Positions 20,977-39,032 of a DNA stretch of 64,000 nt are shown here, in pieces. Under the pieces are notes generated by a model. The model was not told the origin of the DNA and did not search any database. It worked only from the letters and a program-made list of their open reading frames with translations. The DNA comes from a virus, in IMG/VR virus record IMGVR_UViG_3300042879_004726, positions 1-64,000 of that record; one strand, written 5' to 3'. Within the stretch, counting starts at the first letter, position 1. Each line of letters begins with the position of its first letter. A program made the translations under genes and the position numbers.

Positions 20977-22494
20977 ATGTTTAAAACTAAAGAAGAATTA
21001 AAAAACTATTTATTGGATAATTGGAATAAGTCAAATTTCATCAAAGTATCCTTAAATAAAAATGTTAAAAATATAATAGAAAATGAAACAACATTTTTAA
21101 ATAAGTATTATCAAAACATTCCTTTGAGAACCAGAGCTTATGTGATAATCAATGAAATAATAGAAAATACACTACCAAAATGTAAATGTGGATGTTCTCA
21201 AGTTTGTTGTATTGATAGGACTTATAGTGAAAGGGGATTTAGGTTGTATGCTAACTCAGAATGTTCCAGAGGAGATAGTAAAATTGATGAAAACTCTAAA
21301 TCAAAACTTGAAAATTATAATTGGTTATTTAATGAAAGAATAATTTTGAAAAAATCAATTGAAAACATATCAAATGAATTAAATGTTTCAACAATTTCTG
21401 TAGTTAAGTACCTTAAAATGCATCAATTGCATAATTTAATTGATGCAAGAAGAAGAAATAGTTATAGTACAAAAATATTAAGTGACAAAGAGAAGTTGAA
21501 TGAATTATATGATAGTGGATTGACCTGTGAACAAATTGCGGAAAAATTAGGAACTACAAAGTCTACTGTATCTCGTTGGTTGAATAATTATAATATTAAA
21601 ATAAAAGATTCAAACTCATATGAAAGAAAGGTTAAAAAAATAAGTAAAGAGGAAAATACATTATTTGAATTTATATCATCAATTTATTCTGGTACAATTA
21701 TACAATCAAATCGTTCAATATTAAAAGGAAAGGAATTAGATTTATATCTACCCGATAAAAATTTAGCAATAGAATATAATGGTTTATATTCTCATCAATA
21801 CAGACCTACAGAAATTAAAGAATCTTTAATTAAAGATAAATCTTATCATTTAAATAAAACAAAAGAGTGTGAGAATCAGGGAATACAATTACTTCAATTT
21901 TATAGTGATGAATGGTTAAATAAACCTGAAATTGTAAAATCAATTATAACAAGTAAATTAAATTTAAATGAAAAAATTTATGCAAGAAAGTGTGAAAAAG
22001 TAATTATAGACACTCATACAAAAAATACATTTCTAAATCAAAATCACATACAGGGTGAAGATAAAAGTAAAGTTAAACTTGGATTATTATATTGCAACGA
22101 ATTGGTATGTTTAATGACTTTTACTAAATCAAGATTTAATAAAAATTATATTTGGGAACTTTCTAGATTTTCAAATAAAATTGGTTTAAATGTAATAGGT
22201 GGATTTAGTAAATTATTAAAATGGTTTAGAGAGAATTATGATGGAAATATTGTTTCATATGCTGATAGAAGATATTCAAATGGAAATGTTTATATTAAAA
22301 ATTCATTTAATATAATAAAAATAAATTCACCATCATATTATTACGTTGATAAAAATTACAACCAAAGATATAATAGAATGAAATTTCAAAAAAAACTTAT
22401 TGGTGCTTATCAATGTACTGAATTTGAAAAAGCAAGAGAAATGGGATATAATAAAATATTTGATTGTGGTAATATTTGCTTTGGTTTGGAATAA
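20977..22494 (+). CDS. Free-standing EDxHD (Vsr-like) homing endonuclease
   Basis: This 505-aa protein is the only plus-strand gene. The N-terminus has a Cys cluster (CKCGCSQVCC) and two HTH-like segments (SIENISNELNVSTISVVKYL; LTCEQIAEKLGTTKSTVSRW). The nuclease core, about residues 250-310, is KGKELDLYLPDKNLAIEYNG (E/D), LYSHQ (H), then ECENQGIQLLQFYSDEW, the EDxHD pattern of Vsr-like homing enzymes such as I-Bth0305I. A C-terminal GNAT-like part (KLGLLYCNELVCLMTF...YADRRYSNGN) is usual in this family. It is very AT-rich compared with gp23. Its opposite strand and its place between gp23 and a tail gene point to recent insertion. Its target is unknown. Confidence 0.85.
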   Translation: MFKTKEELKNYLLDNWNKSNFIKVSLNKNVKNIIENETTFLNKYYQNIPLRTRAYVIINEIIENTLPKCKCGCSQVCCIDRTYSERGFRLYANSECSRGDSKIDENSKSKLENYNWLFNERIILKKSIENISNELNVSTISVVKYLKMHQLHNLIDARRRNSYSTKILSDKEKLNELYDSGLTCEQIAEKLGTTKSTVSRWLNNYNIKIKDSNSYERKVKKISKEENTLFEFISSIYSGTIIQSNRSILKGKELDLYLPDKNLAIEYNGLYSHQYRPTEIKESLIKDKSYHLNKTKECENQGIQLLQFYSDEWLNKPEIVKSIITSKLNLNEKIYARKCEKVIIDTHTKNTFLNQNHIQGEDKSKVKLGLLYCNELVCLMTFTKSRFNKNYIWELSRFSNKIGLNVIGGFSKLLKWFRENYDGNIVSYADRRYSNGNVYIKNSFNIIKINSPSYYYVDKNYNQRYNRMKFQKKLIGAYQCTEFEKAREMGYNKIFDCGNICFGLE

Positions 22495-26683: not shown

Positions 26684-29600
26684 TTACTCCACCTTTAGGC
26701 ATTTCAACTTGCTTTCCAGATGCAACTACATCTTTTGCTTGAGATTCAATATCAGGTTCAATTACAGGTTTTCCCAAATTCATTTGAGATGTTTGATCTA
26801 ATGGCATTCCAGTTTGTGGGTCAATAGGAATACTTGGATCTGGAATAACTCCTTTTTTAATTTCCTTTTCAATTTTTGCATCTTCTTCTACAATTTCAAC
26901 GTCTGTTTGGCGTAGAATTTTTCTTCTCACATAATCTTGTGAAAAATATTTCCCTACATATGGTTCTGCAATTTGTACCATACCTAGCCTTTCGTTTAAT
27001 AATTCTGCATCTTTCAATTCTGCAAAATGATTATCATAAAGAAAATCATACTGAATATGTTCATCCATCATTGACCAATCTTCTGGTGTGATGATATTTT
27101 TCAATATTAATTGAGTTTTTAACATATCACTAAACATATATGAAAATCTTTTTCTCAATCTAGAAACAAATTTACTAAATTTAACTTCATCTCTCAATAT
27201 TTCAGATGATTTTCCTAAATTAAATCCACCTTCTCCATCCATTCTTGATGGTGGAACATTTAAAGAATTATATAACTTTTTTTGAAAATAATTTATATCT
27301 GTAATTTCACCTAAATTCTGACCTCCAGGAAGTGTTGAAATTTCCGTTCCTCTTCCACCTTCTCTTCTTGGGAGCCAAAAATCTTCAAGCATTGCCATAA
27401 ATTTTTTATCGTCCCTAACCTCACCTGTTGAGTTGCAAGTGTAAATACCACAATCCAAAGCAAAAGTATGATAATCGTGATATAGTTCTTCCTTATCAAT
27501 TGTAAGGGTTCCCACATCCATAGTATCATCTAAAAATTCAATATTTTTAATTTTGTGATTTTTATAAATGAAAGAGTTTCTATATTCTTTCCAAGAATTG
27601 AAACCAAGTTGTCTACAAACATTAATTAAATTACTGTAAGTAAATTTACTTAAAGGTTCTCCCAAACCTTTTCCTTTGCGTGGTCTCTTTTCGGAGTTTA
27701 GTTCTATCCATGAAGTAAAATCAATGTTATCATTTACAAAAGAAATGGTATTATTTAAACTTAATCTTCTTTCGGCACATTCTTCAACAATATTAAAAAT
27801 TTGTTGAGTATACTCAATTGTTTGTTTATTAGATAATTTTTGTCTATATTCTTCTGAATTTTTTCCACCCCAAAGAGAGTTTTGAGCCAATTGGGTCATT
27901 TTTTGGAAGTGAGATTTTGGAATTGCTTTACCTCGCTCTCGTGCAGAATTTCTAGATTCTTCAGTCCAACCATTTCTAATGTTTTCTTTAAATTTTTCCC
28001 TAAATTTAATATCAGTTTTTAATTTATCTTGAAGAATTTCATTACCTTTTTTTGAATTATTAACTATTTCAGTTTTTGATAAACTATGAATTCCTGATTT
28101 TTTCAGGTAGCAATTTTTTCCACCTTTAGAACCATATATTTTACCATTTTCAATTTGCTGCTCTTTTGATATATTAAAAAATGGTAATCCCAATTCTCTC
28201 TTTCTTTGAGCACATACTTTGCCTCCTATTTTACCAGCATCACTACAATGTTTTTTATGGTATTCAAAATGGTCATCACGAGACATTCTGATCAAATTCT
28301 CTGGAGAATTATTATATCGGTCATAATCCTTATGATGAACTGTGCATTTATTCTCATCAATCCTTTCTTGATTAAAATTGTATTCATTTAAAAGATTATT
28401 TTGATCCTTCCAATTAGAAACTAATCTGTGAGTAAAAATCCACTTCTTACTTTCATTTTCATATAATTGCTCATAAGTAGAATTTTTATTTCCTGGAATA
28501 TTATTCTGTCTCTTATAGTGAGGAATCATAGAATCTCCAACTTTTAGATCTTTTGCTTCTACTTTTCCCTTATTCCAAACTGGAAATTTGTGATCCAATG
28601 TACACGTAATGGCTTCATCATTATCTAAAGTAATTCTCATTACTTTTTCGTTTTTGCGAGTTACTCCTGCCCAACTTATAATTCCAGGAGCAAATTTTCC
28701 AGTTTTAGGGTCACAGGAATATGCCCAAAGACGGTTTCCTTCATTAAATTCTTTTGTAATCTCAGATAGAGATAGAGTTCTACCATCTAAAAGGGGAATT
28801 TTGGTATCCATTGCAAGACAAGAATCATAAACAAGTTTATTTCTATAACGCATCATCACATCACGAAGATATTGTTCTGCCTTAACTTTTGGAAGATTTC
28901 CAACATCAATATAAAAAATTCTTCTTTCAGGGGCTCTTGATAATCTATAAATTACAAGAGAATCTTCAATCATTCTTAATTGATTGAGAGATTTAATTGC
29001 TTTATGTAAATATGAAAGTGTTGAACCTTTATTTCTATCTACAAGACCTGAAGTGCAATATGTTATTGAATCCTTTGTAAATTTAATCCCACTAGTTCCA
29101 CCTAAAGATGATGGATTAGTGGTTGGATAAGACATTTTAGGATTGTAAACAAAATACTCTTCAATCTCAGGAAATTCATATTCCATTGGATCATCAACAT
29201 TCATTCTCCCCAGACGATTTATTTTTTTATCATTTTCACTCTTCTTTTGTTGACGAACATAACGCATTTTCATTGCGTCAATGTATCTTAATTCTTGTAT
29301 TCCCGCTTCTGGATTTTTTAAATCTATAACTTTATGATAATAAAGTCTACCATCAACATACCAATTTCTGTAAATTTCGTGTGATTTTTTATCAAAATCT
29401 AAAAGTTCTAAAATGTACTTAAACTCTTGCCTTATTTTCTTTTTTATTCCATCACTAGCATTTAAATTATCTAAATCAATTTGTATTGGCGTATCATTGG
29501 TATCACTAACAATAGCTTCATTAACAATATCTTCAATGGCACTATCACATTCTGGGTGAAGTGCCATCTCACGATATCTTTTAATTAGATCGAATTCAGT

Positions 29601-29753
29601 TCTATAGACTCCTTCAATATCAACGTAAGAACCAAAGAATCCACTACTTAAATAAAAATCTGAAGAATCCTCATTATTGGGTGGAACTGGAGAAAGTATA
29701 GATGGGGATTCTTTTCCCTCATCTTCAATAGAGAATCCAAATAATTTTGCCAT
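26679..29753 (-). CDS. 20: Portal vertex protein gp20, interrupted by an intein
   Basis: The 1024-aa precursor consists of residues 1-311 of portal, a 463-residue intein (312-774), and 250 further portal residues. The spliced product would be 561 aa, close to T4 gp20 (524). Portal features are FFGSYVDIEGVYRTEFDLI near the N-terminus, RAPERRIFYIDVGNLPK, and after splicing DDKKFMAMLEDFWLPRREGG, with LPGGQNLGEI and NVPPSRMDGEGGF. The dodecameric portal is the DNA entry channel and the docking site for the terminase. The splice point falls in LVYDS|STGEVRDD, a strongly conserved stretch. A GATAAATA octamer lies 31 nt upstream. Confidence 0.93.
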   Translation of the reverse strand: MAKLFGFSIEDEGKESPSILSPVPPNNEDSSDFYLSSGFFGSYVDIEGVYRTEFDLIKRYREMALHPECDSAIEDIVNEAIVSDTNDTPIQIDLDNLNASDGIKKKIRQEFKYILELLDFDKKSHEIYRNWYVDGRLYYHKVIDLKNPEAGIQELRYIDAMKMRYVRQQKKSENDKKINRLGRMNVDDPMEYEFPEIEEYFVYNPKMSYPTTNPSSLGGTSGIKFTKDSITYCTSGLVDRNKGSTLSYLHKAIKSLNQLRMIEDSLVIYRLSRAPERRIFYIDVGNLPKVKAEQYLRDVMMRYRNKLVYDSCLAMDTKIPLLDGRTLSLSEITKEFNEGNRLWAYSCDPKTGKFAPGIISWAGVTRKNEKVMRITLDNDEAITCTLDHKFPVWNKGKVEAKDLKVGDSMIPHYKRQNNIPGNKNSTYEQLYENESKKWIFTHRLVSNWKDQNNLLNEYNFNQERIDENKCTVHHKDYDRYNNSPENLIRMSRDDHFEYHKKHCSDAGKIGGKVCAQRKRELGLPFFNISKEQQIENGKIYGSKGGKNCYLKKSGIHSLSKTEIVNNSKKGNEILQDKLKTDIKFREKFKENIRNGWTEESRNSARERGKAIPKSHFQKMTQLAQNSLWGGKNSEEYRQKLSNKQTIEYTQQIFNIVEECAERRLSLNNTISFVNDNIDFTSWIELNSEKRPRKGKGLGEPLSKFTYSNLINVCRQLGFNSWKEYRNSFIYKNHKIKNIEFLDDTMDVGTLTIDKEELYHDYHTFALDCGIYTCNSTGEVRDDKKFMAMLEDFWLPRREGGRGTEISTLPGGQNLGEITDINYFQKKLYNSLNVPPSRMDGEGGFNLGKSSEILRDEVKFSKFVSRLRKRFSYMFSDMLKTQLILKNIITPEDWSMMDEHIQYDFLYDNHFAELKDAELLNERLGMVQIAEPYVGKYFSQDYVRRKILRQTDVEIVEEDAKIEKEIKKGVIPDPSIPIDPQTGMPLDQTSQMNLGKPVIEPDIESQAKDVVASGKQVEMPKGGVI
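27432..28820 (-). mobile_element. HNH-containing intein in gp20
   Basis: A 463-residue intein. It begins at Cys1 (CLAMDTKIPLLDGRTL) and ends YTCN before Ser+1 of the C-extein. Block B is TCTLDHKFPV (T74, H77). Block F is near YHDYHTFALDCGIY. An HNH endonuclease core lies at residues 160-185, CTVHHKDYDRYNNSPENL, followed by a basic region with repeated NUMOD-like DNA-binding segments (GGKNCYLKKSGIHS; NGWTEESRNSARERG). The residue before the terminal Asn is Cys rather than the usual His. The boundaries are set by the intact portal sequence that results from joining the flanks. Confidence 0.9.
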
Positions 29754-29783
29754 TATATACTAAGAACGTATTTTAAGTATTAC

Positions 29784-29791
29784 TATTTATC
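29784..29791 (-). promoter_or_regulatory. Late promoter-like GATAAATA before gp20
   Basis: GATAAATA on the minus strand overlapping the gp19 stop, 31 nt before the gp20 ATG; one base from the late consensus. Confidence 0.4.
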
Positions 29792-30434
29792 AATTAATAA
29801 TTACATTGGTTGCATCTGATCCATTAGTTGGTCCTTGTCCTGCAGTCCAATAAAGTACTTGAAACTCTACACTATACTCTTCAATTGAATTTTCAGAATC
29901 ATAAGAAAGATCAATTGCAGAAACATTAGTTGGAAAAATGCTATTAAATTTATAAGTTCTTAATGGTGTAATTGCAGAGCTATTGAGAATATTGCTATTA
30001 TTTATTGATTCTTTGGTTCCAGCTCCTCTTCCAAGTTGGTGAACATAAGCATCTACCATATATGAACTGGGATTAGTTGCTCCCGTGGCATTTTCAAGTT
30101 TATTCATATGGTTCATCCATCTTTCAAAGGCAGTTCTTAATTTGAAATTTTCATCATTAATAATAGTAACATTCCAAACATCAAAACTTCTATCACCTGC
30201 AACTTTAAGAGTTCTTCCTCTAAATGGAACATCAATTGAAGCAATTGTTGAAGCTGGAAGTGATGCTGTTTTACATAGAAATTTAAATGTTTCAGATTCT
30301 TCTCCAGGCGCAACATTCCATGAACTTGCAATTGAGGTTGGAAAAGTTGGAATTTCAACTTCAAATAAATTGGATCTTGCACCACCACCAGCAAGTCTTT
30401 CTTTAAATCCAGTAATTGTTCTGAGTGTAGACAT
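29790..30434 (-). CDS. 19: Tail tube protein gp19
   Basis: A 214-aa subunit of the inner tail tube. Typical features: GGGARSNLFEVEIPTFP, FLCKTASLPASTIASIDVPF, GRTLKVAGDRSFDVWNVTI, and LRTAFERWMNHMNKLEN, with the C-terminal SIEEYSVEFQVLYW strand. It lies between sheath gp18 and portal gp20 as in T4, and its length is near the 163-aa core plus extensions usual in cyanophages. It starts 35 nt after the gp18 stop. Confidence 0.92.
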   Translation of the reverse strand: MSTLRTITGFKERLAGGGARSNLFEVEIPTFPTSIASSWNVAPGEESETFKFLCKTASLPASTIASIDVPFRGRTLKVAGDRSFDVWNVTIINDENFKLRTAFERWMNHMNKLENATGATNPSSYMVDAYVHQLGRGAGTKESINNSNILNSSAITPLRTYKFNSIFPTNVSAIDLSYDSENSIEEYSVEFQVLYWTAGQGPTNGSDATNVIIN

Positions 30435-30469
30435 TTTTAGAACCTCCGTGTTTTTTTACTAAAATTAAA

Positions 30470-32659
30470 TCAGACTCTACCAGCCACTTCTTCAAAAGAA
30501 ATGCCGGTTCTAGTTGCAACAAATGTGAGTGTGATATAATTAATTGATCTAGTTGGCTGTAAGAAAATATCAGCTCTAAACTCATTGTTATCAATTATAT
30601 CAGGAGTATTATTTGTTTCATCGCAAATTACAAGATAATTAAAAATTCCATTTTTTGCCTGAACATCTCTTAGATATGGTTCAACAATATTGACAAAGTT
30701 TGATCTAGTTGTTTGATTGTTTAACTCAAAAAGTTGAGCTTGGGCAGATCTCTTTAATGCCTGCTCAACAGTCAAGAATAATCTACGAACATTGATTCTA
30801 TCAAAGGCAGATGAATATGCTAAGGCAGTTTTGTCTCCAAAAAGAACAACTCCAGAACCTGGTTGATTAATAATAGGATTTATTCTTGCTTGATAGAGTA
30901 AATCTCTTTGAGCTTTTGTTGGATTGTAAGCAAGTTTGATTGCATTATTTAACACACCTCTTTGTAATCCTGCTGGAGAGAACCAAGGATAGGCATTAAT
31001 ATTTGTTCTGGCCATTAAACCAGCAATATCAGCATTACAAGGAATATATCTGAAAAGATTATTAAATCTATCAAATGTATACTTATATCCATTATCAAAA
31101 ATTGCATATGATGAAGATGATAATGGTGAGAAGAACTGAATAATATTATTTGTTTGTGTGGTTGTATTTGTTATATCAACTACACCGGCTCTATGTGGAG
31201 AAATTACAGCCACACAATCCTTTCTACTTTCAGCAATAGAGATTAATTGATTTGCTTTTGCCTGAGACTCTTCAATAGTATCAAGCCCAGGACCTCCAAT
31301 CAGATAATCTACCGCAACTTCATCTTCATTGGTAAAAAGATTATAAGCAGTAACAAGACCACCAAGAGTTGCTCTAGAACCGTTTCCAGTATAATCTGCT
31401 CCTGCAGATAACGTGAAAGATTGATTTCCAATTACATTAAATGTAATATTCTGAGCATTTTGATTCCAACCTCCATTTGAAATGGAAACTGGAGAAAAAG
31501 ATGCACTTGGAATTCCAGAATAAGTTGTAAATCCCCCAGAAACTGGAGTAATGTTATTTACGGTATCTGCAGAAGTATAATAATTTGTTCCGGAATAAAC
31601 ATAACTGGAGAAGTTTGCAAGATAATTTCTATACCATACTTTTTGTGGAGAATTTGCTCCCGAAATTGCATCAGTAGCCTTAGAAATTCCAACGTGCTTT
31701 TCTAAAAGATTTCCTTGAACTCCTGTGATGGAACCATTATCATCTACAATTGCAATATTTAAAGCATCATTATTACAATTTCTTGTCAATGCATACTGAG
31801 TGGTAATAGGCTTTGGTGCAATAGATCTCCAATAAATTGTTGAATTTGAAAGACCTAATGTTTGTTCATTATACCAATCAAGAACTGAATTTGCTGTTAC
31901 TGCTGAACCAGTAGAAACTCCAGAATTGGATATAAATGTAAGGGTTTTATTTGCTACAATAGCACTATATTCAGATCCTTCAGAATAAGTAATTAATGTT
32001 TCTGTTCCACCAGTTGATACTCTAGAAAGAATTTTAACTTCAATTGTAGAACTTGCAGTTGTTATTCCTGAATTTACACCAACAACAATTCCTTTTAGAT
32101 ATCCATTAAATGTTGATGTACTACCAGATCCTGCTACAACTGTGCTAATTCCAACAGAAACTCCAAATCCAATTTGAGCACCAATTGCTCCAGGATTAGT
32201 TGTTGCGAGTCCAATGATTTGATCTGCTTTATCATCAATTACACATACTTTCAATCCATTAGCCCAAGTTCCAGGTGTCCTTGCTGCAAAATGATATGCG
32301 CCAGTACTCTGAGAATTATAATCATCAAAATTATTAATTTTTACTGTTGCAGTTGTACCATAACCAACTCTTGAATTTTTAAGATTATTATCATCAACTC
32401 TTACTACTTTAAGAATTCCACCATAAGAAAGGAATGATGAAGCACTCATCCAATATTCAAACTGTCTATCTGAAGAAATTGGTTTTCCAAAAGTATCTAT
32501 TAATGCTTGTTCATTGGTGATATCAATAGCCTGATTTACAGGACCAATTGAAAAAGGACCAGCAATTGCTCCAATATTATCCAATACATTATCTGCCCTT
32601 CCTACTGTTAAATCAACCTCTCTGATTAGTGTACCAGGAGATAATTGAGGAGTTGCCAT
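30470..32659 (-). CDS. 18: Contractile tail sheath protein gp18
   Basis: A 729-aa sheath subunit (T4 gp18 is 659). The N-terminus, PQLSPGTLIREVDLTVGRAD, and the following GAIAGPFSIGPVNQA are characteristic of sheath proteins. A large variable middle domain (about residues 100-480, Ser/Thr/Gly-rich) faces outward. The conserved C-terminal part is NPIINQPGSGVVLFGDKTAL, FDRINVRRLFLTVEQALK and SFEEVAGRV. A late-like octamer lies 36 nt upstream. It is complete. Confidence 0.95.
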   Translation of the reverse strand: MATPQLSPGTLIREVDLTVGRADNVLDNIGAIAGPFSIGPVNQAIDITNEQALIDTFGKPISSDRQFEYWMSASSFLSYGGILKVVRVDDNNLKNSRVGYGTTATVKINNFDDYNSQSTGAYHFAARTPGTWANGLKVCVIDDKADQIIGLATTNPGAIGAQIGFGVSVGISTVVAGSGSTSTFNGYLKGIVVGVNSGITTASSTIEVKILSRVSTGGTETLITYSEGSEYSAIVANKTLTFISNSGVSTGSAVTANSVLDWYNEQTLGLSNSTIYWRSIAPKPITTQYALTRNCNNDALNIAIVDDNGSITGVQGNLLEKHVGISKATDAISGANSPQKVWYRNYLANFSSYVYSGTNYYTSADTVNNITPVSGGFTTYSGIPSASFSPVSISNGGWNQNAQNITFNVIGNQSFTLSAGADYTGNGSRATLGGLVTAYNLFTNEDEVAVDYLIGGPGLDTIEESQAKANQLISIAESRKDCVAVISPHRAGVVDITNTTTQTNNIIQFFSPLSSSSYAIFDNGYKYTFDRFNNLFRYIPCNADIAGLMARTNINAYPWFSPAGLQRGVLNNAIKLAYNPTKAQRDLLYQARINPIINQPGSGVVLFGDKTALAYSSAFDRINVRRLFLTVEQALKRSAQAQLFELNNQTTRSNFVNIVEPYLRDVQAKNGIFNYLVICDETNNTPDIIDNNEFRADIFLQPTRSINYITLTFVATRTGISFEEVAGRV

Positions 32660-32694
32660 TTTTTTCTCCGTAAGATCTCAGTTTAACTAAAAAT

Positions 32695-32702
32695 TATTTA
32701 TT
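32695..32702 (-). promoter_or_regulatory. Late promoter-like AATAAATA before gp18
   Basis: AATAAATA on the minus strand, 36 nt upstream of the gp18 ATG, in the 82-nt gap after the zinc-ribbon gene. Confidence 0.45.
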
Positions 32703-32741
32703 AAAAAATAACTTTACGTGGGGGAAATATGACGTGAATTA

Positions 32742-32972
32742 TTACCAGTCTGGATATTGCCAATTTACATTTAAATAAGTTAATCGTTTATTATTAATAA
32801 CTCGTTTTACGGTACATTCTTTACATTCATATGAGTATGATGATGCAACAGGCCCTCTATCCTTGCGAGTTCTATAAAATTCACCTACCAAATTTTTATT
32901 TAACCCACAAGATCTACATTTTCTGTCTGTAAATAATAAGTGACCCAAATTCAGTTGCTTATCAATTTCCAT
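32742..32972 (-). CDS. Small zinc-ribbon protein between gp17 and gp18
   Basis: A 76-aa product starting MEIDKQLNLGHLLFTDRKCR. Two CxxC pairs, CRSC at about residues 19-22 and CKEC at about 50-53, enclose NLVGEFYRTRKDRGP and YSYE, which is a zinc-binding module. The same CxxC...FY..RK.......YEC..C pattern is seen as the N-terminal domain of some phage HNH endonucleases; here no nuclease part follows. It may be a remnant of such an enzyme or a small DNA-binding protein. It starts 6 nt after the gp17 stop. Confidence 0.55.
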   Translation of the reverse strand: MEIDKQLNLGHLLFTDRKCRSCGLNKNLVGEFYRTRKDRGPVASSYSYECKECTVKRVINNKRLTYLNVNWQYPDW

Positions 32973-32978
32973 ATTTTG

Positions 32979-34193
32979 TTAGTATTTCCACATATAATCC
33001 CATTCAGTTGATCTATCTCCATATTCATCTAAAAACCATCTATCTCCATCTTCATCAACAAAGGTCTTTTCTTCATTTAATCCATCAGATATAAATCCAA
33101 ATGGTGACATATCTTGCTCTATTTGATTCTTTTGTTCTTCATATAGTCTTTTTCTTACGTCTTGATCAGTAAGTTCTTTGAAATAATCTTGAGCAACTAA
33201 CCAAGCATAAATGACCAAGCACATTGCTAGGTCATCATTGCAACCTTCCTCAGCCTCAAAAGAATTGTGTTTTTGTATAAAAGTTGTTAATTCTGAAATT
33301 ATTTCATAATCGTTTAATATCAATTTACTTTCTTCAATCATAGTCTTGAGATTAAGACATCCAACTTTTTTAACAGTTTTTGACATCTTAACTCCTAATT
33401 GAGTCTTTTTACCCGAAAATCCTTGCCCAACAATTTGACCCGCCCTTCCTCTCATTGAACACATAAGAAGATTATTATATTCTAAATCATATTGAAGAAT
33501 ACTTGCTACTTGATCTCCAACATCGTTTACTTCACATAGAATATAAGAGTTATTATACGCAACTGCTGCTTCGTGTATTACACTTGGGAACAACATTGGT
33601 TTTATTTCGTTATGCCTATATTTCGCAACAACTTTATGAGGAAACTGAGTGATATCTATTATAGTAAATGCTGAATAATCATTTCCTACGCCTCTAGCAA
33701 CGTCTACAGTAATCAAATAGTCGTGTTCTTCTATAGGGTCCTCATAGACATCTAAACCAGCACTACGGGCCTTTGGGTGGTCATATACGAGCGTTCTGAG
33801 TTTACTTGGTGCAATAAGAGTATCAACAGAACCTAAAAATTCACAATTATGTGATACTATATTATTTGAATAATATAAATGATCAGTACCAGAATTTACA
33901 ATATCATATAATTCTATTGGTTCATTAATGACTTTTGATCTTTTTAAAAAGCAACCACCATTTTTTGTGTAAATTTCTGTAAATTTATCTAAATCTTTTG
34001 CTTTAATTATTCCTTCAATTGTAGATAATGGATGGTCTAAAGAACATTTTAATTCATTTCCATCTGTAAATGTTAAATGTATGTACTTATTCTTTGTTAT
34101 TTTATTAATACCAAAAAAGGATACTAAACCTTCTGGTGAAAGTATTTTGTGTCCTTTTTTGTTTAATACTACGCTTTCAGGAATTGTATGCAC
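32979..34193 (-). CDS. 17: Terminase large subunit gp17, C-terminal half with C-intein
   Basis: A 404-aa precursor: residues 1-116 are the C-half of a split intein, and 117-404 are the gp17 nuclease domain. The nuclease metal-binding motifs are ITVDVARGVGNDYSAF (Asp), ILCEVNDVGDQ (Glu/Asp) and GCNDDLAMC (Asp). The extein starts with Cys+1 (CEFLGSVDTLIAPSK). There is no ATPase domain, so this product alone cannot package DNA and must be joined to the upstream half by trans-splicing. The start is GTG 34193; an in-frame TGA lies just upstream, so no continuous frame with the N-half exists. Confidence 0.9.
   Translation of the reverse strand: MHTIPESVVLNKKGHKILSPEGLVSFFGINKITKNKYIHLTFTDGNELKCSLDHPLSTIEGIIKAKDLDKFTEIYTKNGGCFLKRSKVINEPIELYDIVNSGTDHLYYSNNIVSHNCEFLGSVDTLIAPSKLRTLVYDHPKARSAGLDVYEDPIEEHDYLITVDVARGVGNDYSAFTIIDITQFPHKVVAKYRHNEIKPMLFPSVIHEAAVAYNNSYILCEVNDVGDQVASILQYDLEYNNLLMCSMRGRAGQIVGQGFSGKKTQLGVKMSKTVKKVGCLNLKTMIEESKLILNDYEIISELTTFIQKHNSFEAEEGCNDDLAMCLVIYAWLVAQDYFKELTDQDVRKRLYEEQKNQIEQDMSPFGFISDGLNEEKTFVDEDGDRWFLDEYGDRSTEWDYMWKY
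33846..34193 (-). mobile_element. C-terminal half of atypically split gp17 intein
   Basis: 116 residues from GTG 34193. HKILSPEGLVSFFGINKI, then HLTFTDGNELKCSLDHPL (block B, with D-H), a LYDIVNSGTDHLYYS block F, and the end IVSHN followed by Cys+1. It resembles the C-part of AceL-TerL, which I recall with the same KILSP.G..F.GI.K order and the same insertion site in terminase. Terminal His-Asn and Cys+1 are all present, so it appears active. Confidence 0.88.
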
Positions 34194-34276
34194 TTGTTTA
34201 AAATTTTTTCAGGATAATTTTTATATTCCAATTGTTCTTTTGTGATATTTTTACTGTTCGTTTTTGAGTTGCTCAT
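34169..34276 (-). CDS. Tiny ORF bridging the split gp17 halves
   Basis: A 35-codon frame from ATG 34276 to TAG 34169, in a different frame from both gp17 halves and overlapping the end of the first and the start of the second. It reads MSNSKTNSKNITKEQLEYKN, then YPEKILNKCIQFLKA. The composition looks coding (Lys-rich, helical). It may be the remnant of an endonuclease gene once located between the intein halves, or only chance. There is no evidence of expression. Confidence 0.25.
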   Translation of the reverse strand: MSNSKTNSKNITKEQLEYKNYPEKILNKCIQFLKA

Positions 34277-36008
34277 ATAAGTCACCTATACATACATCTA
34301 TTATACCATTATTTATTGTAGTCTCAAAGGATAACGATTCAAACTCAACCTTAAATTGTTGTTCGCTGGTGTTAGCAATTGTCTGTTTTTTCCATTCTTC
34401 ATCTCTACCAGGAACCTCACTCCAATGAACATCGGTAAAAATATATTCATTTTTACCTTTTTCAGCATCGTGCCACATTCGGTAGAAATGATTCATACCG
34501 TGTGGAGTTGATACAATAATTACTTTTGTCTGTTTACCTGAAGTAATTGTAGGATATACTGATGCGAAGAAAGAATCTGCGATATGATTTGGTACGAACG
34601 CAAATTCATCCAAAAATAAAATATTGAATGACATACCACGAACCGCAGAAGCAGAAGTAGAAGCAGCCAAGATTTTACTTCCATTTTCCAATTCCAATGA
34701 ACCTTTATTCCAAGAAATAATTCCTTGCTGCATCCATTTTGGTAGATTTTCATATGCTGTTTGCAATCTATCTAAAAGTTCTCTTGCAGTTGCTGCCTTG
34801 TTTGCAAGAATACCAATATTTACATTATCATTAAATACTGCATAATGTAAAAGGAATGCAACTACTGTTGTTGAATTGTGTGTAGGTATAAAAGTTTTTC
34901 CACATAAAAATAAATGATCTTGATTATCAACTGAAATGCATTGCATAGGTTCAGTTTCAATTTTACGAATATCTTTAATATAAAGTCTTTTATTTTTTGG
35001 ATGGTCTAAACTATTTTTTTGTCTTTCTAATTTTCTTGGTAACGTAAAAACTTCATATTTATTTGTACAAAAACTTATGGTTCCATATAATCCAGAATAA
35101 CCGGATATTTTTTTGTACCTTAGTCTACTTTTAATACCCAATGAAGATAATAACTCTCTGACTTGATGTAACAATTTTCCATCTTTTTGATAAAATTCAC
35201 AAGCACCATTTGGAGATACTGAACCATCAGTATCCATCAATCCCTTTAAAAGTTCTAATCTTTGTGAAGTTGAAGATCTTAAATATTCTTCTGGAATGAT
35301 TTTTTCAGATATTTTGTTTATATCTTCATATAAACCAGTAATTGCACCATTTGATTTTGAACCATCTCCTAACCAAACGCCAAGAGTATAGGGGTCTATT
35401 GGAAGCTTAATTTCTGGTAAATCAATTGATTCATTTATTTGGATATAAATTGATGACGATTTAAATACTTTTTTAAGACAATTAAATTTTTCTATAATTT
35501 GATTTGTAGTCAGTATTTTTTCTTTATGATACCAATCACTATGAGAAACTTTCCATAAATGTTCACCACATGCTTTTATAATTTCTCCATTATCAAATTC
35601 AATCTCATAAGTATCTATTTGTTGTATAGGAGATTTTCCAATTACTTTTGTAGTTTTCCCATCTCTTGCAAAAATAAGATCACCCACATTCAAATCTCCC
35701 ATATTAGTCCATCCAGTTGGTGTTGGGATGGGTGTATCAAGGGACAACATTTTTCCAGTCTGACGAGGCATCTTACAGATATTAAATCTGTGTTTATGGA
35801 AATTATTAATTAACTTTTCTTGAAAATGATATGGTTTAAATGATTGTAGTCCATGATCAAGAGTAACAATTTTTACATAATTATTTGCAAAATAAACAGG
35901 ATCATTCATACACTTCACAATCTCAAAAACCTGCTCTTCTGTAAACTCGTGAGTGGTATTTGCTTTTTTAAGTAAAGGATTGCCAAGATATACATCATTA
36001 TTTGACAT
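34251..36008 (-). CDS. 17: Terminase large subunit gp17, N-terminal half with two intein segments
   Basis: A 585-aa precursor of the DNA-packaging ATPase. Residues 1-86 and 379-557 are gp17; 87-378 are a complete intein; 558-585 are a short N-intein. The extein has KMPRQTGK|STTVVAFLLHY, the Walker A loop cut exactly by the first intein, then ILFLDEFAFVP (Walker B) and VIIVSTPHG (coupling motif). It ends QQFKVEFE before the split intein. After both splicing events and joining to the C-half, gp17 would be about 553 aa, the usual size. Unspliced protein has a disrupted P-loop and should lack ATPase activity. Confidence 0.92.
   Translation of the reverse strand: MSNNDVYLGNPLLKKANTTHEFTEEQVFEIVKCMNDPVYFANNYVKIVTLDHGLQSFKPYHFQEKLINNFHKHRFNICKMPRQTGKMLSLDTPIPTPTGWTNMGDLNVGDLIFARDGKTTKVIGKSPIQQIDTYEIEFDNGEIIKACGEHLWKVSHSDWYHKEKILTTNQIIEKFNCLKKVFKSSSIYIQINESIDLPEIKLPIDPYTLGVWLGDGSKSNGAITGLYEDINKISEKIIPEEYLRSSTSQRLELLKGLMDTDGSVSPNGACEFYQKDGKLLHQVRELLSSLGIKSRLRYKKISGYSGLYGTISFCTNKYEVFTLPRKLERQKNSLDHPKNKRLYIKDIRKIETEPMQCISVDNQDHLFLCGKTFIPTHNSTTVVAFLLHYAVFNDNVNIGILANKAATARELLDRLQTAYENLPKWMQQGIISWNKGSLELENGSKILAASTSASAVRGMSFNILFLDEFAFVPNHIADSFFASVYPTITSGKQTKVIIVSTPHGMNHFYRMWHDAEKGKNEYIFTDVHWSEVPGRDEEWKKQTIANTSEQQFKVEFESLSFETTINNGIIDVCIGDLYEQLKNEQ
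34254..34337 (-). mobile_element. Ultra-short N-intein of split gp17 intein
   Basis: 28 residues at the end of the N-half, starting at Ser1 (SLSFETTINNGI) and ending CIGDLYEQLKNEQ before the stop. It aligns in layout with the roughly 25-residue AceL-TerL N-intein, which as I recall ends in a similar IEDLYKRL. The splice donor is Glu in VEFE|S. Use of Ser rather than Cys at position 1 is the main difference. Confidence 0.85.
34875..35750 (-). mobile_element. Class 3-type intein in the gp17 Walker A loop, LAGLIDADG remnant
   Basis: 292 residues, from Met1 (MLSLDTPIPTPTGWTNMGDL) to His291-Asn292, followed by Ser+1. The usual Cys/Ser nucleophile at position 1 is absent. The three class 3 marker residues are present: Trp66 two residues after block B His64 (GEHLW), Cys271 at block F position 4 (MQCISV), and Thr290 in block G (PTHN). 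Two LAGLIDADG-like motifs lie at 123-131 (LGVWLGDGS) and 167-177 (LLKGLMDTDGS), but the gap between them is only about 36 residues, shorter than usual, which suggests an internal deletion in the endonuclease. Confidence 0.88.
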
Positions 36009-36014
36009 AATATA

Positions 36015-36428
36015 TTAACCTTTATTTTTTAAGTATAAAATTGCATTTTCTAAATTTTTAATATTATCCTTAAAATTTCCTAGACCTCTGTTACAATGAT
36101 GGCATAACATGCCACGAAATTTTCCTGTTCTGTGATTGTGGTCCATAACTAATGAATAAATTTTTCCAACATGAATATTATTTCTAGAACCTGCTACTTC
36201 ATTTCCACCACATATATCGCACTTTTCTTGTTGTTTTAATTTTCTAACCTCATCATCACTTAATTGCCCTCTAAATTTTCCTCTACATATTTCTGCTCTA
36301 TAAGTTGCCCTGCATTTTCTACACCAACTATCCAATCCGTCTTTACATTTGTTATGCGGAGGAAAATTTATAGTGTCTCTTGGTTTATTTTCTTTACATC
36401 TAGTGCAAGTTTTTGTATTCATGCCCAT
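36015..36428 (-). CDS. Endonuclease VII-like HNH protein
   Basis: A 137-aa product. An N-terminal zinc module (CTRCKENKPRDT..., CRKCRATYR) is followed by a second pair CDICGG and the endonuclease VII core: SLVMDHNHRTGKFRGMLCHH, CNRGLGNFKDN, then a helix ENAILYLKN. The DH..RTG..RG.LC..CN..LG pattern is that of the recombination endonuclease VII family (T4 gp49 resolves DNA junctions before packaging). Its place beside the terminase fits either a packaging-linked resolvase or a mobile HNH gene. ATG 36428 was used; 36422 is also possible. A CATAAATA lies upstream. Confidence 0.72.
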   Translation of the reverse strand: MGMNTKTCTRCKENKPRDTINFPPHNKCKDGLDSWCRKCRATYRAEICRGKFRGQLSDDEVRKLKQQEKCDICGGNEVAGSRNNIHVGKIYSLVMDHNHRTGKFRGMLCHHCNRGLGNFKDNIKNLENAILYLKNKG

Positions 36429-36444
36429 ATCACAACTTTAATAT

Positions 36445-36452
36445 TATTTATG
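36445..36452 (-). promoter_or_regulatory. Late promoter-like CATAAATA
   Basis: CATAAATA on the minus strand, 17 nt before ATG 36428. It would transcribe the endonuclease VII-like gene and gp17. Confidence 0.4.
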
Positions 36453-36472
36453 TAATGAAGTAGGCATGAAAT

Positions 36473-38572
36473 TTACCACTTTACTTTATTTGCCCAATAA
36501 GCTGCTGACATTGGACCTTTCGCAATATTTTTTGCATGTCTAGATTGAAATTTATGGCGGCGACTTGCATATGCTTTAGACTCACCTTTCTTTTTAGGTG
36601 AACCTTTCACTCCCTTTTGCCCAAAACGAATAATTTTCTCCTCTCCCCCAGAACATGCCTTAACAACATGTGATTTTCCTGTAAGAGAATCTCCTACTGC
36701 TTGTGATTTTGGTTTATTACACTTCATTTTTGATTTATCTAATCTAACTGCTTCATCAACTTCAACCTCCTCACTCATTGGCTTTATATAATTTTTATTT
36801 GGCCCTAATTTTGCTGAACTTCCTCCTTGAGGACCAAATACTTGAATGAGTGGCTGTCCTGGTTGAATTTCTGATGCAGTATGATGAATAACTACACAAC
36901 CTGGATAAACTTTTTTAAGTTCATCATTTAATTCTTTTCTAGTTGGAAGTTTTATTTGTGGGAAGAACATTTTAATATAATAATACTTTCCCCTCCAAGA
37001 AATAGTTGTGGCAATTACATTTCCAGTTTGTGATTGAAGTCTTGTTGCTTCGTTTACCTGAGATTTAAATCCTTTAATTGGTTCTGGTTTTATTAAGTCT
37101 ATAACCTCAGCAAAAGTATTTCCTTCTGAATCTTCTATTGTTATATCTTCAGTTTTTACACAATTTGGATATTTTTTACCGAACATTTTCTTCATTCCCT
37201 TTTTTTTATAACCTGCCCAACACTTTTCATTAATAATTTCATCTATGAGTTTGGTTGAAATACATTCTTCTTTATTTAAATCAATAGGGGGTAAATCAAC
37301 TGGACCCATTAATTTTTTTACCATTTCTGATGGTAATTGTACTCTTTGTTTTGGTGTCATATTATGAAGTTTTTGTTGTGGCTTTGTGAGTGGTTTTTTA
37401 TTGCTACTAATAATAAAACTTTTTGATTCATCAACATCCATCTCACCACTATCAACATAATCCGCCGCAGCATCAAGATAATCTGCTGCTTTAGTAATCT
37501 TTGATTGAACCCATGCTTCTATATTTCCTTCACCTTTCATTTTTTTCTTAAGTCTTTTTACTGCAGATGCAATAGTTGAGAGTTCTGATCTTGCCATTGA
37601 ATGTTCATGATCTTTTTCGTTTGACTCTTTAATTGAGCATTCGTCTTTACCGTGTATATCACAAAAAACACCCCTTTTCGTGTTATTACATTTTTTCGGT
37701 CCTTCAACTGGTTTTCCTATACCAACTTCTGTTGGTTTAATTGATTGTCCTGGAGTGTTAAATCCTGCTGGTATTGGTTTACACACTTCGTCAGTATTAC
37801 ACCAATACATTCCTTTACCACACTTTTCTTCACCAATAATTCTTTCAACTATAGTTGGATATGATTCATTTTTATTTCCCCAATTTTTAGCACCAACTTT
37901 ACGACATTTAACAAGTGCTCCAGAGGCATATGCACTTGGCCAAACATCATAACGAGATTTTACTTTATGGTAACAAGCATCCTTTTTACCATCACTTTTA
38001 TTTTTTTTATTCTTTAACTCATGTAAATTTACTTCTTCAGTTTTTACATTTGTTGGTTTAGAACCACCAGTTTTTTCTGGTTGATTTGGATCTTTTCTGT
38101 TTTTTCTTCTAAACGCACGTTCTTCTTCTTCGTCCGATAGATTTGATGCCATCTTAGAACTTCCACACTTTGGAGTCGATTTTTGTCCTTGTTGACGCGC
38201 ACATGGGGCACCCGCAAAAGGACCACCTATCTGCACCCATCCCTTTACAGTTTTTCCAGTTTTGGGGTTTTTTCCACTGGATTTTTTAAACCAATCGTGA
38301 AGACTTTCATCTCCAGATTTAGTTTCTTCTTTCACATCTTTAAATTTTTTATGATTCTTTTTGGCCTCTGCTTCCATTTTTTTCAAACGGGTATAATAAT
38401 CTGGAATTTCATCAAGATGTTGAAGAGCAATATCTCTAGCCAATTCATGATTATTGGTGTGTTCATGTTCAATAGGCTCTCCCATATCAAGTTGATTTTG
38501 TATAAAGGAAGCATCAAGACGATGCTTTTTTGCAATTTGTTCAACTGTTTTATAAGATTTTAATTTTGCCAT
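36473..38572 (-). CDS. Large accessory virion protein with DUF5661-like N-terminus
   Basis: A 699-aa multi-module protein. Residues 1-75 carry MGEPIEHEHTNNHELARDIA and IPDYYTRLKKMEAEA, the DUF5661 pattern. Near 195-235, DACYHKVKSRYDVWPSAYAS and LVKCRKVGAKNWGN match a DUF5872-like module. A cysteine-rich middle (CGKGMYWCNTDEVC) is followed by CWAGYKKKGMKKMFGKKYPNC. The C-terminus is basic and conserved (SRRHKFQSRHAKNIAKGPMS, AAYWANKVKW). These modules are shared among cyanophage genomes, with unknown function. It lies between gp16 and the gp17 cluster, so a role at the packaging vertex or inside the head is possible. Confidence 0.6.
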   Translation of the reverse strand: MAKLKSYKTVEQIAKKHRLDASFIQNQLDMGEPIEHEHTNNHELARDIALQHLDEIPDYYTRLKKMEAEAKKNHKKFKDVKEETKSGDESLHDWFKKSSGKNPKTGKTVKGWVQIGGPFAGAPCARQQGQKSTPKCGSSKMASNLSDEEEERAFRRKNRKDPNQPEKTGGSKPTNVKTEEVNLHELKNKKNKSDGKKDACYHKVKSRYDVWPSAYASGALVKCRKVGAKNWGNKNESYPTIVERIIGEEKCGKGMYWCNTDEVCKPIPAGFNTPGQSIKPTEVGIGKPVEGPKKCNNTKRGVFCDIHGKDECSIKESNEKDHEHSMARSELSTIASAVKRLKKKMKGEGNIEAWVQSKITKAADYLDAAADYVDSGEMDVDESKSFIISSNKKPLTKPQQKLHNMTPKQRVQLPSEMVKKLMGPVDLPPIDLNKEECISTKLIDEIINEKCWAGYKKKGMKKMFGKKYPNCVKTEDITIEDSEGNTFAEVIDLIKPEPIKGFKSQVNEATRLQSQTGNVIATTISWRGKYYYIKMFFPQIKLPTRKELNDELKKVYPGCVVIHHTASEIQPGQPLIQVFGPQGGSSAKLGPNKNYIKPMSEEVEVDEAVRLDKSKMKCNKPKSQAVGDSLTGKSHVVKACSGGEEKIIRFGQKGVKGSPKKKGESKAYASRRHKFQSRHAKNIAKGPMSAAYWANKVKW

Positions 38573-38594
38573 TGAGTTTATAATTACCTTTTTA

Positions 38595-38602
38595 TATTTA
38601 TT
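38595..38602 (-). promoter_or_regulatory. Late promoter-like AATAAATA
   Basis: AATAAATA on the minus strand overlapping the end of gp16, 23 nt before ATG 38572. Confidence 0.4.
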
Positions 38603-39032
38603 AATCTATACTATCTTTAGATTGTTGTTTTAAAAGTTTAGATAATTCGGCAGTTGAGCCTACAAATAATGCATTGTTAACTGTTGTAGGTCCTTTTGGC
38701 TTATCGTCTTCAATATCCTTTAAAGTTTTTTGGAGTTGTAATAATTTTTCTGCAGTTTCTCCCGTGTTTTTTATCAATTGACCAACAACTTCATATGCAC
38801 GAGGAGCTGCAGTGTCTTGGGCCAATTCAAGAATTCCATTAATTGCTTCTTGTCCCTTTTCAATTAATGAATATAAATTTGCTCTTGCATATTCATAATC
38901 TTTTTTAATATCAATATCTCCTATAATATCTGGTTTAATTTCATCTACGGAAAGCTGTTCTTCTGGTGAAACTATTTCTCCCTTTACATTAAAAGTTTCA
39001 TTTAATTTATCAAATTTTTTTGTCATTTTCAT
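38601..39032 (-). CDS. 16: Small terminase subunit gp16
   Basis: A 143-aa helical protein that recognises DNA and stimulates gp17. The centre has KKDYEYARANLYSLIEKGQE, AINGILELAQDTAAPRAYEV and a GQLIKNTGETAEKLLQLQK coiled helix, typical of gp16 in T4-like phages. The C-terminus has NNALFVGSTAELSKLLKQ, also conserved. The position between gp15 and gp17 agrees. An alternative ATG lies two codons in. Confidence 0.88.
   Translation of the reverse strand: MKMTKKFDKLNETFNVKGEIVSPEEQLSVDEIKPDIIGDIDIKKDYEYARANLYSLIEKGQEAINGILELAQDTAAPRAYEVVGQLIKNTGETAEKLLQLQKTLKDIEDDKPKGPTTVNNALFVGSTAELSKLLKQQSKDSID

What the first reader, a model, noticed from the sequence alone, without database searches (positions are those of the whole stretch)
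32979..34337. Naturally split terminase intein with a 28-residue N-half
The ATPase and nuclease parts of gp17 are in two genes separated by 57 nt and in different frames. The first ends with 28 residues that look like an ultra-short N-intein (Ser1, ending DLYEQL...), the second begins with a 116-residue C-intein ending SHN|C. Joining the exteins restores VEFE|CEFLGSVDTL, the normal terminase sequence. The layout resembles the AceL-TerL family from metagenomes (established knowledge), one of very few atypically split intein types. Ser at position 1 instead of Cys makes this a distinct variant. Packaging would require trans-splicing.
Basis: partly seen in the sequence, partly recalled or inferred. 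Interest (0 to 1): 0.88.

Follow-up and report, generated by a model that had tools for sequence, protein, structure and literature searches.

The report
Split terminase intein with endonuclease scar
In this marine T4-like phage the DNA-packaging motor is encoded as two genes that almost certainly have to be glued together by a known type of split intein (GOS-TerL/AceL-TerL), and the short gap between them is the scar of a homing-endonuclease gene that was cut out, which shows how such split genes persist after the selfish gene that accompanied them has gone.

Summary
In detail: gp17 (large terminase) is encoded as two ORFs, one ending in a 28-aa N-intein (Ser1), one starting with a 116-aa C-intein (SHN|C), 57 nt apart. 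They lie in the same frame, not in different frames, with three in-frame stops between them. The window's gap is its in-frame deletion scar (first 17 codons joined to last 18 at an 8-bp microhomology). Of 116 split loci, 23 lack the endonuclease; the tree needs at least 14 changes of state, yet the split nearly always persists. A phage with 97-100% identical exteins beside the site (L161) carries a different, Cys1 AceL-type intein with a GIY-YIG endonuclease at the same codon, so alleles are swapped. gp17-N also carries a class-3-like Walker-A intein whose LAGLIDADG domain lost 38 codons. Trans-splicing itself is inferred, not shown. New member of a known kind.

The parts
34251..36008 (-). gp17-N ORF (585 aa): terminase ATPase part, a class-3-like intein in Walker A, and the N-intein at its end
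   Evidence: Pfam Terminase_6N E=4.6e-18
34254..34337 (-). N-intein half, 28 aa, Ser1, ends in the DLYEQL helix (S2-type split)
   Evidence: Ser-type profile to Cys-type profile 97.5%; best PDB hit of the Ser-type profile is CatN 6DSL_A, E=0.021
34194..34250 (-). 57-nt gap between the halves, inside the deletion scar of the homing endonuclease
34169..34276 (-). 35-codon residual ORF MSNSKTNSKNITKEQLEYKNYPEKILNKCIQFLKA*: start and end of the endonuclease fused in frame; overlaps the N-half and the C-half start
   Evidence: compared with L114, L083, L084, L115
34226..34233 (-). AATTGGAA microhomology at the deletion junction (present at both ends in intact relatives)
33846..34193 (-). C-intein half, 116 aa, GTG start (ATG in relatives), ends SHN|C
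   Evidence: (6DSL_B CatC, E=5e-19)
32979..33845 (-). gp17 C-extein: terminase RNase H-like nuclease part
   Evidence: Pfam Terminase_6C E=7.2e-15; 75-82% identical to TerL of cultured cyanophages
34875..35750 (-). second, contiguous class-3-like intein (292 aa) inside Walker A (QTGK|M...PTHN|STT), W-C-T residues present
   Evidence: class definition PMC5050341
35299..35306 (-). 38-codon in-frame deletion scar in the LAGLIDADG domain of the class-3 intein

Best explanation
A GOS-TerL-type (Ser1/Cys+1) atypically split class-1 intein in gp17 of a T4-like, cyanophage-related phage, in a post-homing state. The gp17-N and gp17-C polypeptides are made separately. The 28-aa N-intein docks on the 116-aa C-intein, Ser1 starts an N-to-O acyl shift, Cys+1 takes the branch, Asn116 cyclises, and VEFE|CEFLGSV is joined; the Walker-A class-3 intein is removed in cis, giving a 553-aa gp17. 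The gap was once occupied by a DUF559/Vsr-like homing endonuclease that spread the split cassette between phages; a deletion at an 8-bp repeat removed it and left a 35-codon ORF that still overlaps both halves and may couple their translation. Shown: anatomy, homology, endonuclease scar, repeated endonuclease loss, presence of an AceL-type cassette at the same codon in a near-identical phage. Inferred: trans-splicing, translational coupling, past homing activity.
For: Anatomy. C-half matches CatC 6DSL_B, E=5e-19, which is also the top fold hit, E=1.8e-07. N-half profiles match CatN. Eight other contigs have the same split with Ser1; seven of them keep a ~1.1-kb endonuclease with a DUF559 match. 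The scar junction is exact, in frame, at AATTGGAA. Catalytic Ser1, SxxH, penultimate His, Asn and Cys+1 are all present. Purifying selection on the C-intein: dN/dS 0.11-0.13; in an endonuclease-free clade, 10 synonymous to 1 nonsynonymous change. Mobility: C-intein dS 0.14-0.9 while extein dS is mostly above 1.2 or saturated; L161 with 97-100% identical exteins carries another intein at the same codon.
Against: The start codon of the C-half drifted to GTG and has no evident Shine-Dalgarno sequence. dN/dS on the window's own branch cannot be separated into before and after the deletion. The C-half model is of modest confidence (pLDDT 65).
Confidence: 0.85

Rival explanations
1. The intein is dead and gp17 works as two non-covalently paired polypeptides (a gene in pieces), as reported for a ribonucleotide reductase split by a homing endonuclease (cited in PMC10448857).
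For: No experiment shows splicing; the endonuclease is gone and the start codon of the C-half is weakened to GTG.
Against: Every catalytic residue is intact in the window and in its relatives. A dead intein should decay, yet an endonuclease-free clade keeps it under purifying selection. Intein tails left on the ATPase and nuclease would sit at the domain linker.
Confidence: 0.1
2. A contiguous intein was split by a sequencing or assembly error.
For: The two ORFs lie in the same frame, so loss of stop codons would in principle join them.
Against: Three separate in-frame stops (TAA, TAA, TGA); the same split in eight other contigs; the gap aligns to both ends of a real endonuclease gene.
Confidence: 0.02
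3. Stop-codon readthrough or ribosomal bypassing gives one chain that splices in cis.
For: Both ORFs are in one frame; three relatives (L152-L154) have contiguous inteins at this site.
Against: Three stops would have to be read through; in most split relatives the halves are in different frames (91 of 116); the C-half has its own ATG in relatives.
Confidence: 0.02
4. An intact second terminase elsewhere in the phage does the packaging.
For: The record is a 69.8-kb fragment of what is probably a much larger genome.
Against: Only one terminase match in the record; the exteins are highly conserved.
Confidence: 0.03

Closest known systems
GOS-TerL split intein (Bachmann & Mootz 2015, via PMC11766414)
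   Same: Naturally split, host protein TerL, Ser1 with Cys+1, short N-half, C-half of about 115 aa; split after the first helix (PMC13014065)
   Different: N-half 28 aa here against 37 aa; C-half 116 against 115. L091 and L123-L126 found here match the published lengths (37/115) and may be GOS-TerL itself; this could not be checked by sequence
AceL-TerL and the Cat consensus (PDB 6DSL)
   Same: Same host protein, same split position, C-half homologous along its length (E=5e-19); AceL-like cassettes sit at the same codon (L161)
   Different: Cys1, shorter C-half (102-104 aa), only about 40% identity between C-halves; the AceL-like loci pair with a GIY-YIG endonuclease, not a DUF559/Vsr-like one
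Fractured genes (Dassa et al. 2009, cited in PMC3229294 and PMC10448857; content from own knowledge)
   Same: Split intein halves with a free-standing endonuclease gene between them, as in the window's relatives
   Different: In the window the endonuclease has been deleted and only a 35-codon scar remains
Aeromonas phage PX29 gp17A/gp17B (GenBank GU396103)
   Same: Cultured phage with an N-intein on 17A and a C-intein on 17B, annotated as such
   Different: Endonuclease (GIY-YIG) fused in front of the C-intein; C-half only 30% identical

Membership tests
Atypically split TerL inteins (AceL-TerL/GOS-TerL) | Same insertion site in TerL, +1 residue Cys | tested here: met
   VEFE|CEFLG in the window and in L161, which carries an AceL-type cassette at the same codon
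Atypically split TerL inteins (AceL-TerL/GOS-TerL) | Short N-half (25-37 aa), split after the first helix | tested here: met
   28 aa ending DLYEQLKNEQ; split position described in PMC13014065
Atypically split TerL inteins (AceL-TerL/GOS-TerL) | C-half homologous to CatC | tested here: met
   6DSL_B E=5e-19; fold E=1.8e-07; Ser-type to Cys-type profile 99.7%
Atypically split TerL inteins (AceL-TerL/GOS-TerL) | N-half homologous to CatN | tested here: met
   The single sequence finds nothing, but the Ser-type profile has CatN as best hit, E=0.021, and profile-profile with the Cys type gives 97.5%
GOS-TerL subtype | Ser1 with Cys+1 | tested here: met
   Sequence; 33 Ser1 loci with this C-half type
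GOS-TerL subtype | Direct alignment to the published GOS-TerL sequence | not tested
Atypically split TerL inteins (AceL-TerL/GOS-TerL) | Protein trans-splicing activity | not testable with these tools
   Needs expression
Fractured gene with endonuclease | Intact endonuclease gene between the halves | tested here: not met
   Only 35 codons remain, scar at AATTGGAA; intact in L114, L083, L084, L115, L116, L119, L120
Class 3 intein (Walker-A insert) | W-C-T triplet, no nucleophile needed at position 1 | tested here: met
   EHLW, MQCIS, PTHN read from the sequence; Met at position 1 (definition)

The most novel reading that the evidence does not exclude
Splitting at this site is close to a one-way ratchet: split cassettes carrying unrelated endonucleases (DUF559/Vsr-like or GIY-YIG) invade the terminase gene, repeatedly lose the endonuclease and are replaced by each other in near-identical phages, but the gene hardly ever fuses again, so an essential packaging motor stays dependent on trans-splicing.
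Probability: 0.55. Interest if true: 0.55.

Novelty: new member of a known kind. Interest (0 to 1): 0.42.

Why it matters
It gives natural sequences for short-N-half Ser1 split inteins, useful for protein labelling, and a series of states (empty site, split with endonuclease, split with scar, split without trace, contiguous) at one codon of one gene. That makes the origin and fate of split inteins, and whether endonuclease loss ever restores a single gene, directly testable.

Tried and rejected
Pattern scan for other contigs with the same deletion junction: none. A single-sequence PDB search with the 28-aa N-half: nothing; profiles were needed. An 18-nt echo of the homing site, seen in AceL-type loci, was looked for in the Ser1 type: absent. 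A frameshifted contiguous intein was considered, because the gap has coding character in another frame; that frame turned out to be the remnant of the endonuclease. The genome collection (cellular MAGs) gave only two distant loci. Literature for GOS-TerL itself: primary paper not held.

Full report
WHAT IS THERE. On the minus strand the large terminase gp17 is in two ORFs. gp17-N (34251-36008, 585 aa) holds the ATPase part and ends VEFE|SLSFETTINNGIIDVCIGDLYEQLKNEQ*. gp17-C (GTG 34193 to 32979, 404 aa) starts with 116 residues ending NIVSHN|CEFLGSVDTL and continues into the nuclease part (Pfam Terminase_6N and Terminase_6C). The two ORFs are, however, in the same frame, with TAA, TAA and TGA between them. 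Neighbouring genes (tail sheath, gp23, scaffold) and C-extein identity to Synechococcus and Prochlorococcus phages of 75-82% place the phage among T4-like, cyanophage-related viruses.

WHAT IT BELONGS TO. The C-half finds CatC, the engineered consensus of AceL-TerL/GOS-TerL, as its best solved relative (6DSL_B, E=5e-19), and a model of it has the same top fold hit (E=1.8e-07; model confidence modest). The N-half is too short to find anything alone, but its family profile has CatN as best PDB hit (E=0.021) and matches the Cys1 N-half profile at 97.5%, which itself hits CatN at 9e-16. Ser1 with Cys+1 is not a new combination: GOS-TerL has it, with 37- and 115-residue halves (PMC11766414), and both AceL-TerL and GOS-TerL are split after the first helix (PMC13014065), as here.

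THE GAP IS A SCAR. Scans of viral contigs gave 119 loci at this TerL site with a readable N- and C-half (a few contigs overlap in origin, so this is a count of records, not of events). The nearest relatives of the window (L114, L083, L084, L115, L116, L119, L120) have the same 28-aa Ser1 N-half and the same C-half, with a 1.1-kb ORF between them. That ORF ends in a DUF559 nuclease region and has HTH matches, as expected of the endonuclease family named with fractured genes (own knowledge of Dassa et al. 2009). It starts inside the N-intein codons and ends inside the C-half start. The window keeps exactly its first 17 and last 18 codons, joined in frame at AATTGGAA, an 8-base repeat present at both places in the intact relatives. 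The start codon of the C-half, ATG in the relatives, is GTG here. The residual 35-codon ORF still overlaps both halves, so termination-reinitiation coupling is possible; that is inference.

ENDONUCLEASE LOSS IS COMMON, RE-FUSION RARE. Of 116 split loci, 93 have an endonuclease and 23 do not. On a tree of 55 distinct inteins the presence or absence of an endonuclease needs at least 14 changes, 12 forced by well-supported branches. Counts of changes do not give direction, but remnants in the window, L132, L143, L200 and L150 show that at least these are losses. Only three loci (L152-L154) are contiguous; they may be re-fusions, since a Met-Ser-Lys-Thr that starts the C-half of L149 lies inside L153, but direction is not settled. 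In an endonuclease-free clade with a 4-nt gap (L091, L123-L126) the C-intein still shows 10 synonymous to 1 nonsynonymous difference (L091-L123), so splicing function is kept after the endonuclease has gone. This fits the homing cycle (PMC1654191).

MOBILITY. Between the window and its relatives, synonymous divergence of the C-intein is 0.5-0.9, while that of the exteins is mostly above 1.4 or saturated (lowest value 0.64, for the N-extein against L118); for L118-L116 it is 0.14 against 1.2-1.9: the cassette moved between phages. L161 (and L002) is a phage whose gp17 exteins are 97-100% identical to the window's beside the insertion, yet it carries the AceL-type Cys1 intein with a GIY-YIG endonuclease at the same codon. 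Identity breaks off exactly at the insertion point on the N side and resumes in the last, conserved codons of the C-intein. Two distinct split cassettes thus alternate at one site.

SECOND INTEIN. gp17-N also has a contiguous 292-residue intein in Walker A with the class 3 W-C-T residues and Met at position 1 (definition: PMC5050341). Its two LAGLIDADG motifs are 40 residues apart; in 20 other loci they are 73 or 78 apart, and L161 has 38 more codons there, with GAAAAAAT at both ends. So both inteins of this gene have lost endonuclease sequence by in-frame deletions; loss of activity of the LAGLIDADG part is inferred.

VERDICT. The finding is real and correctly read as a split TerL intein. Its claimed novelty is not there, but the endonuclease scar and the swap of cassettes in near-identical phages make it a good case for the life history of split inteins. 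Trans-splicing, although likely, has not been shown.

Noticed in passing
34875-35750 (-): Class-3-like intein in the Walker A motif of gp17 whose LAGLIDADG domain has lost 38 codons in frame at a GAAAAAAT repeat, compared with L161 and L002.
   Followed up: yes
L161 and L002 against window 28834-39011: A near-identical phage carries an AceL-type Cys1 split intein with a GIY-YIG endonuclease at the very codon where the window has the Ser1 type.
   Followed up: yes
AceL-type loci such as L163, L171, L178, L149, L159: end of the N-intein: An 18-nt echo of the empty homing site (like TGTGAGTTTTTTGGAT, the start of the C-extein) overlaps the N-intein stop at a nearly fixed position in 69 of 82 loci with the Cys-type C-half, but not in the Ser1 type. 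It may record how the intein was first fractured.
   Followed up: partly
36015-36428 (-) and the 3' end of 36473-38572 (-): An endonuclease VII-like ORF upstream of gp17, with an altered 3' end of the preceding gene, is absent from the near-identical L161: probably another mobile endonuclease insertion.
   Followed up: partly
20977-22494 (+): A lone plus-strand 505-aa ORF with helix-turn-helix matches sits next to the major capsid gene gp23; candidate free-standing homing endonuclease.
   Followed up: no
L107 (Escherichia phage phiS), L112 (Desulfovibrio phage 7757): Inteins at a second TerL site (IDEC|AF), split in phiS with an extended N-part, contiguous in phage 7757.
   Followed up: no
L152, L153, L154: Contiguous inteins at the same TerL site, nested among split ones; L153 contains the residues that form the C-half start in L149, a possible re-fusion.
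   Followed up: partly
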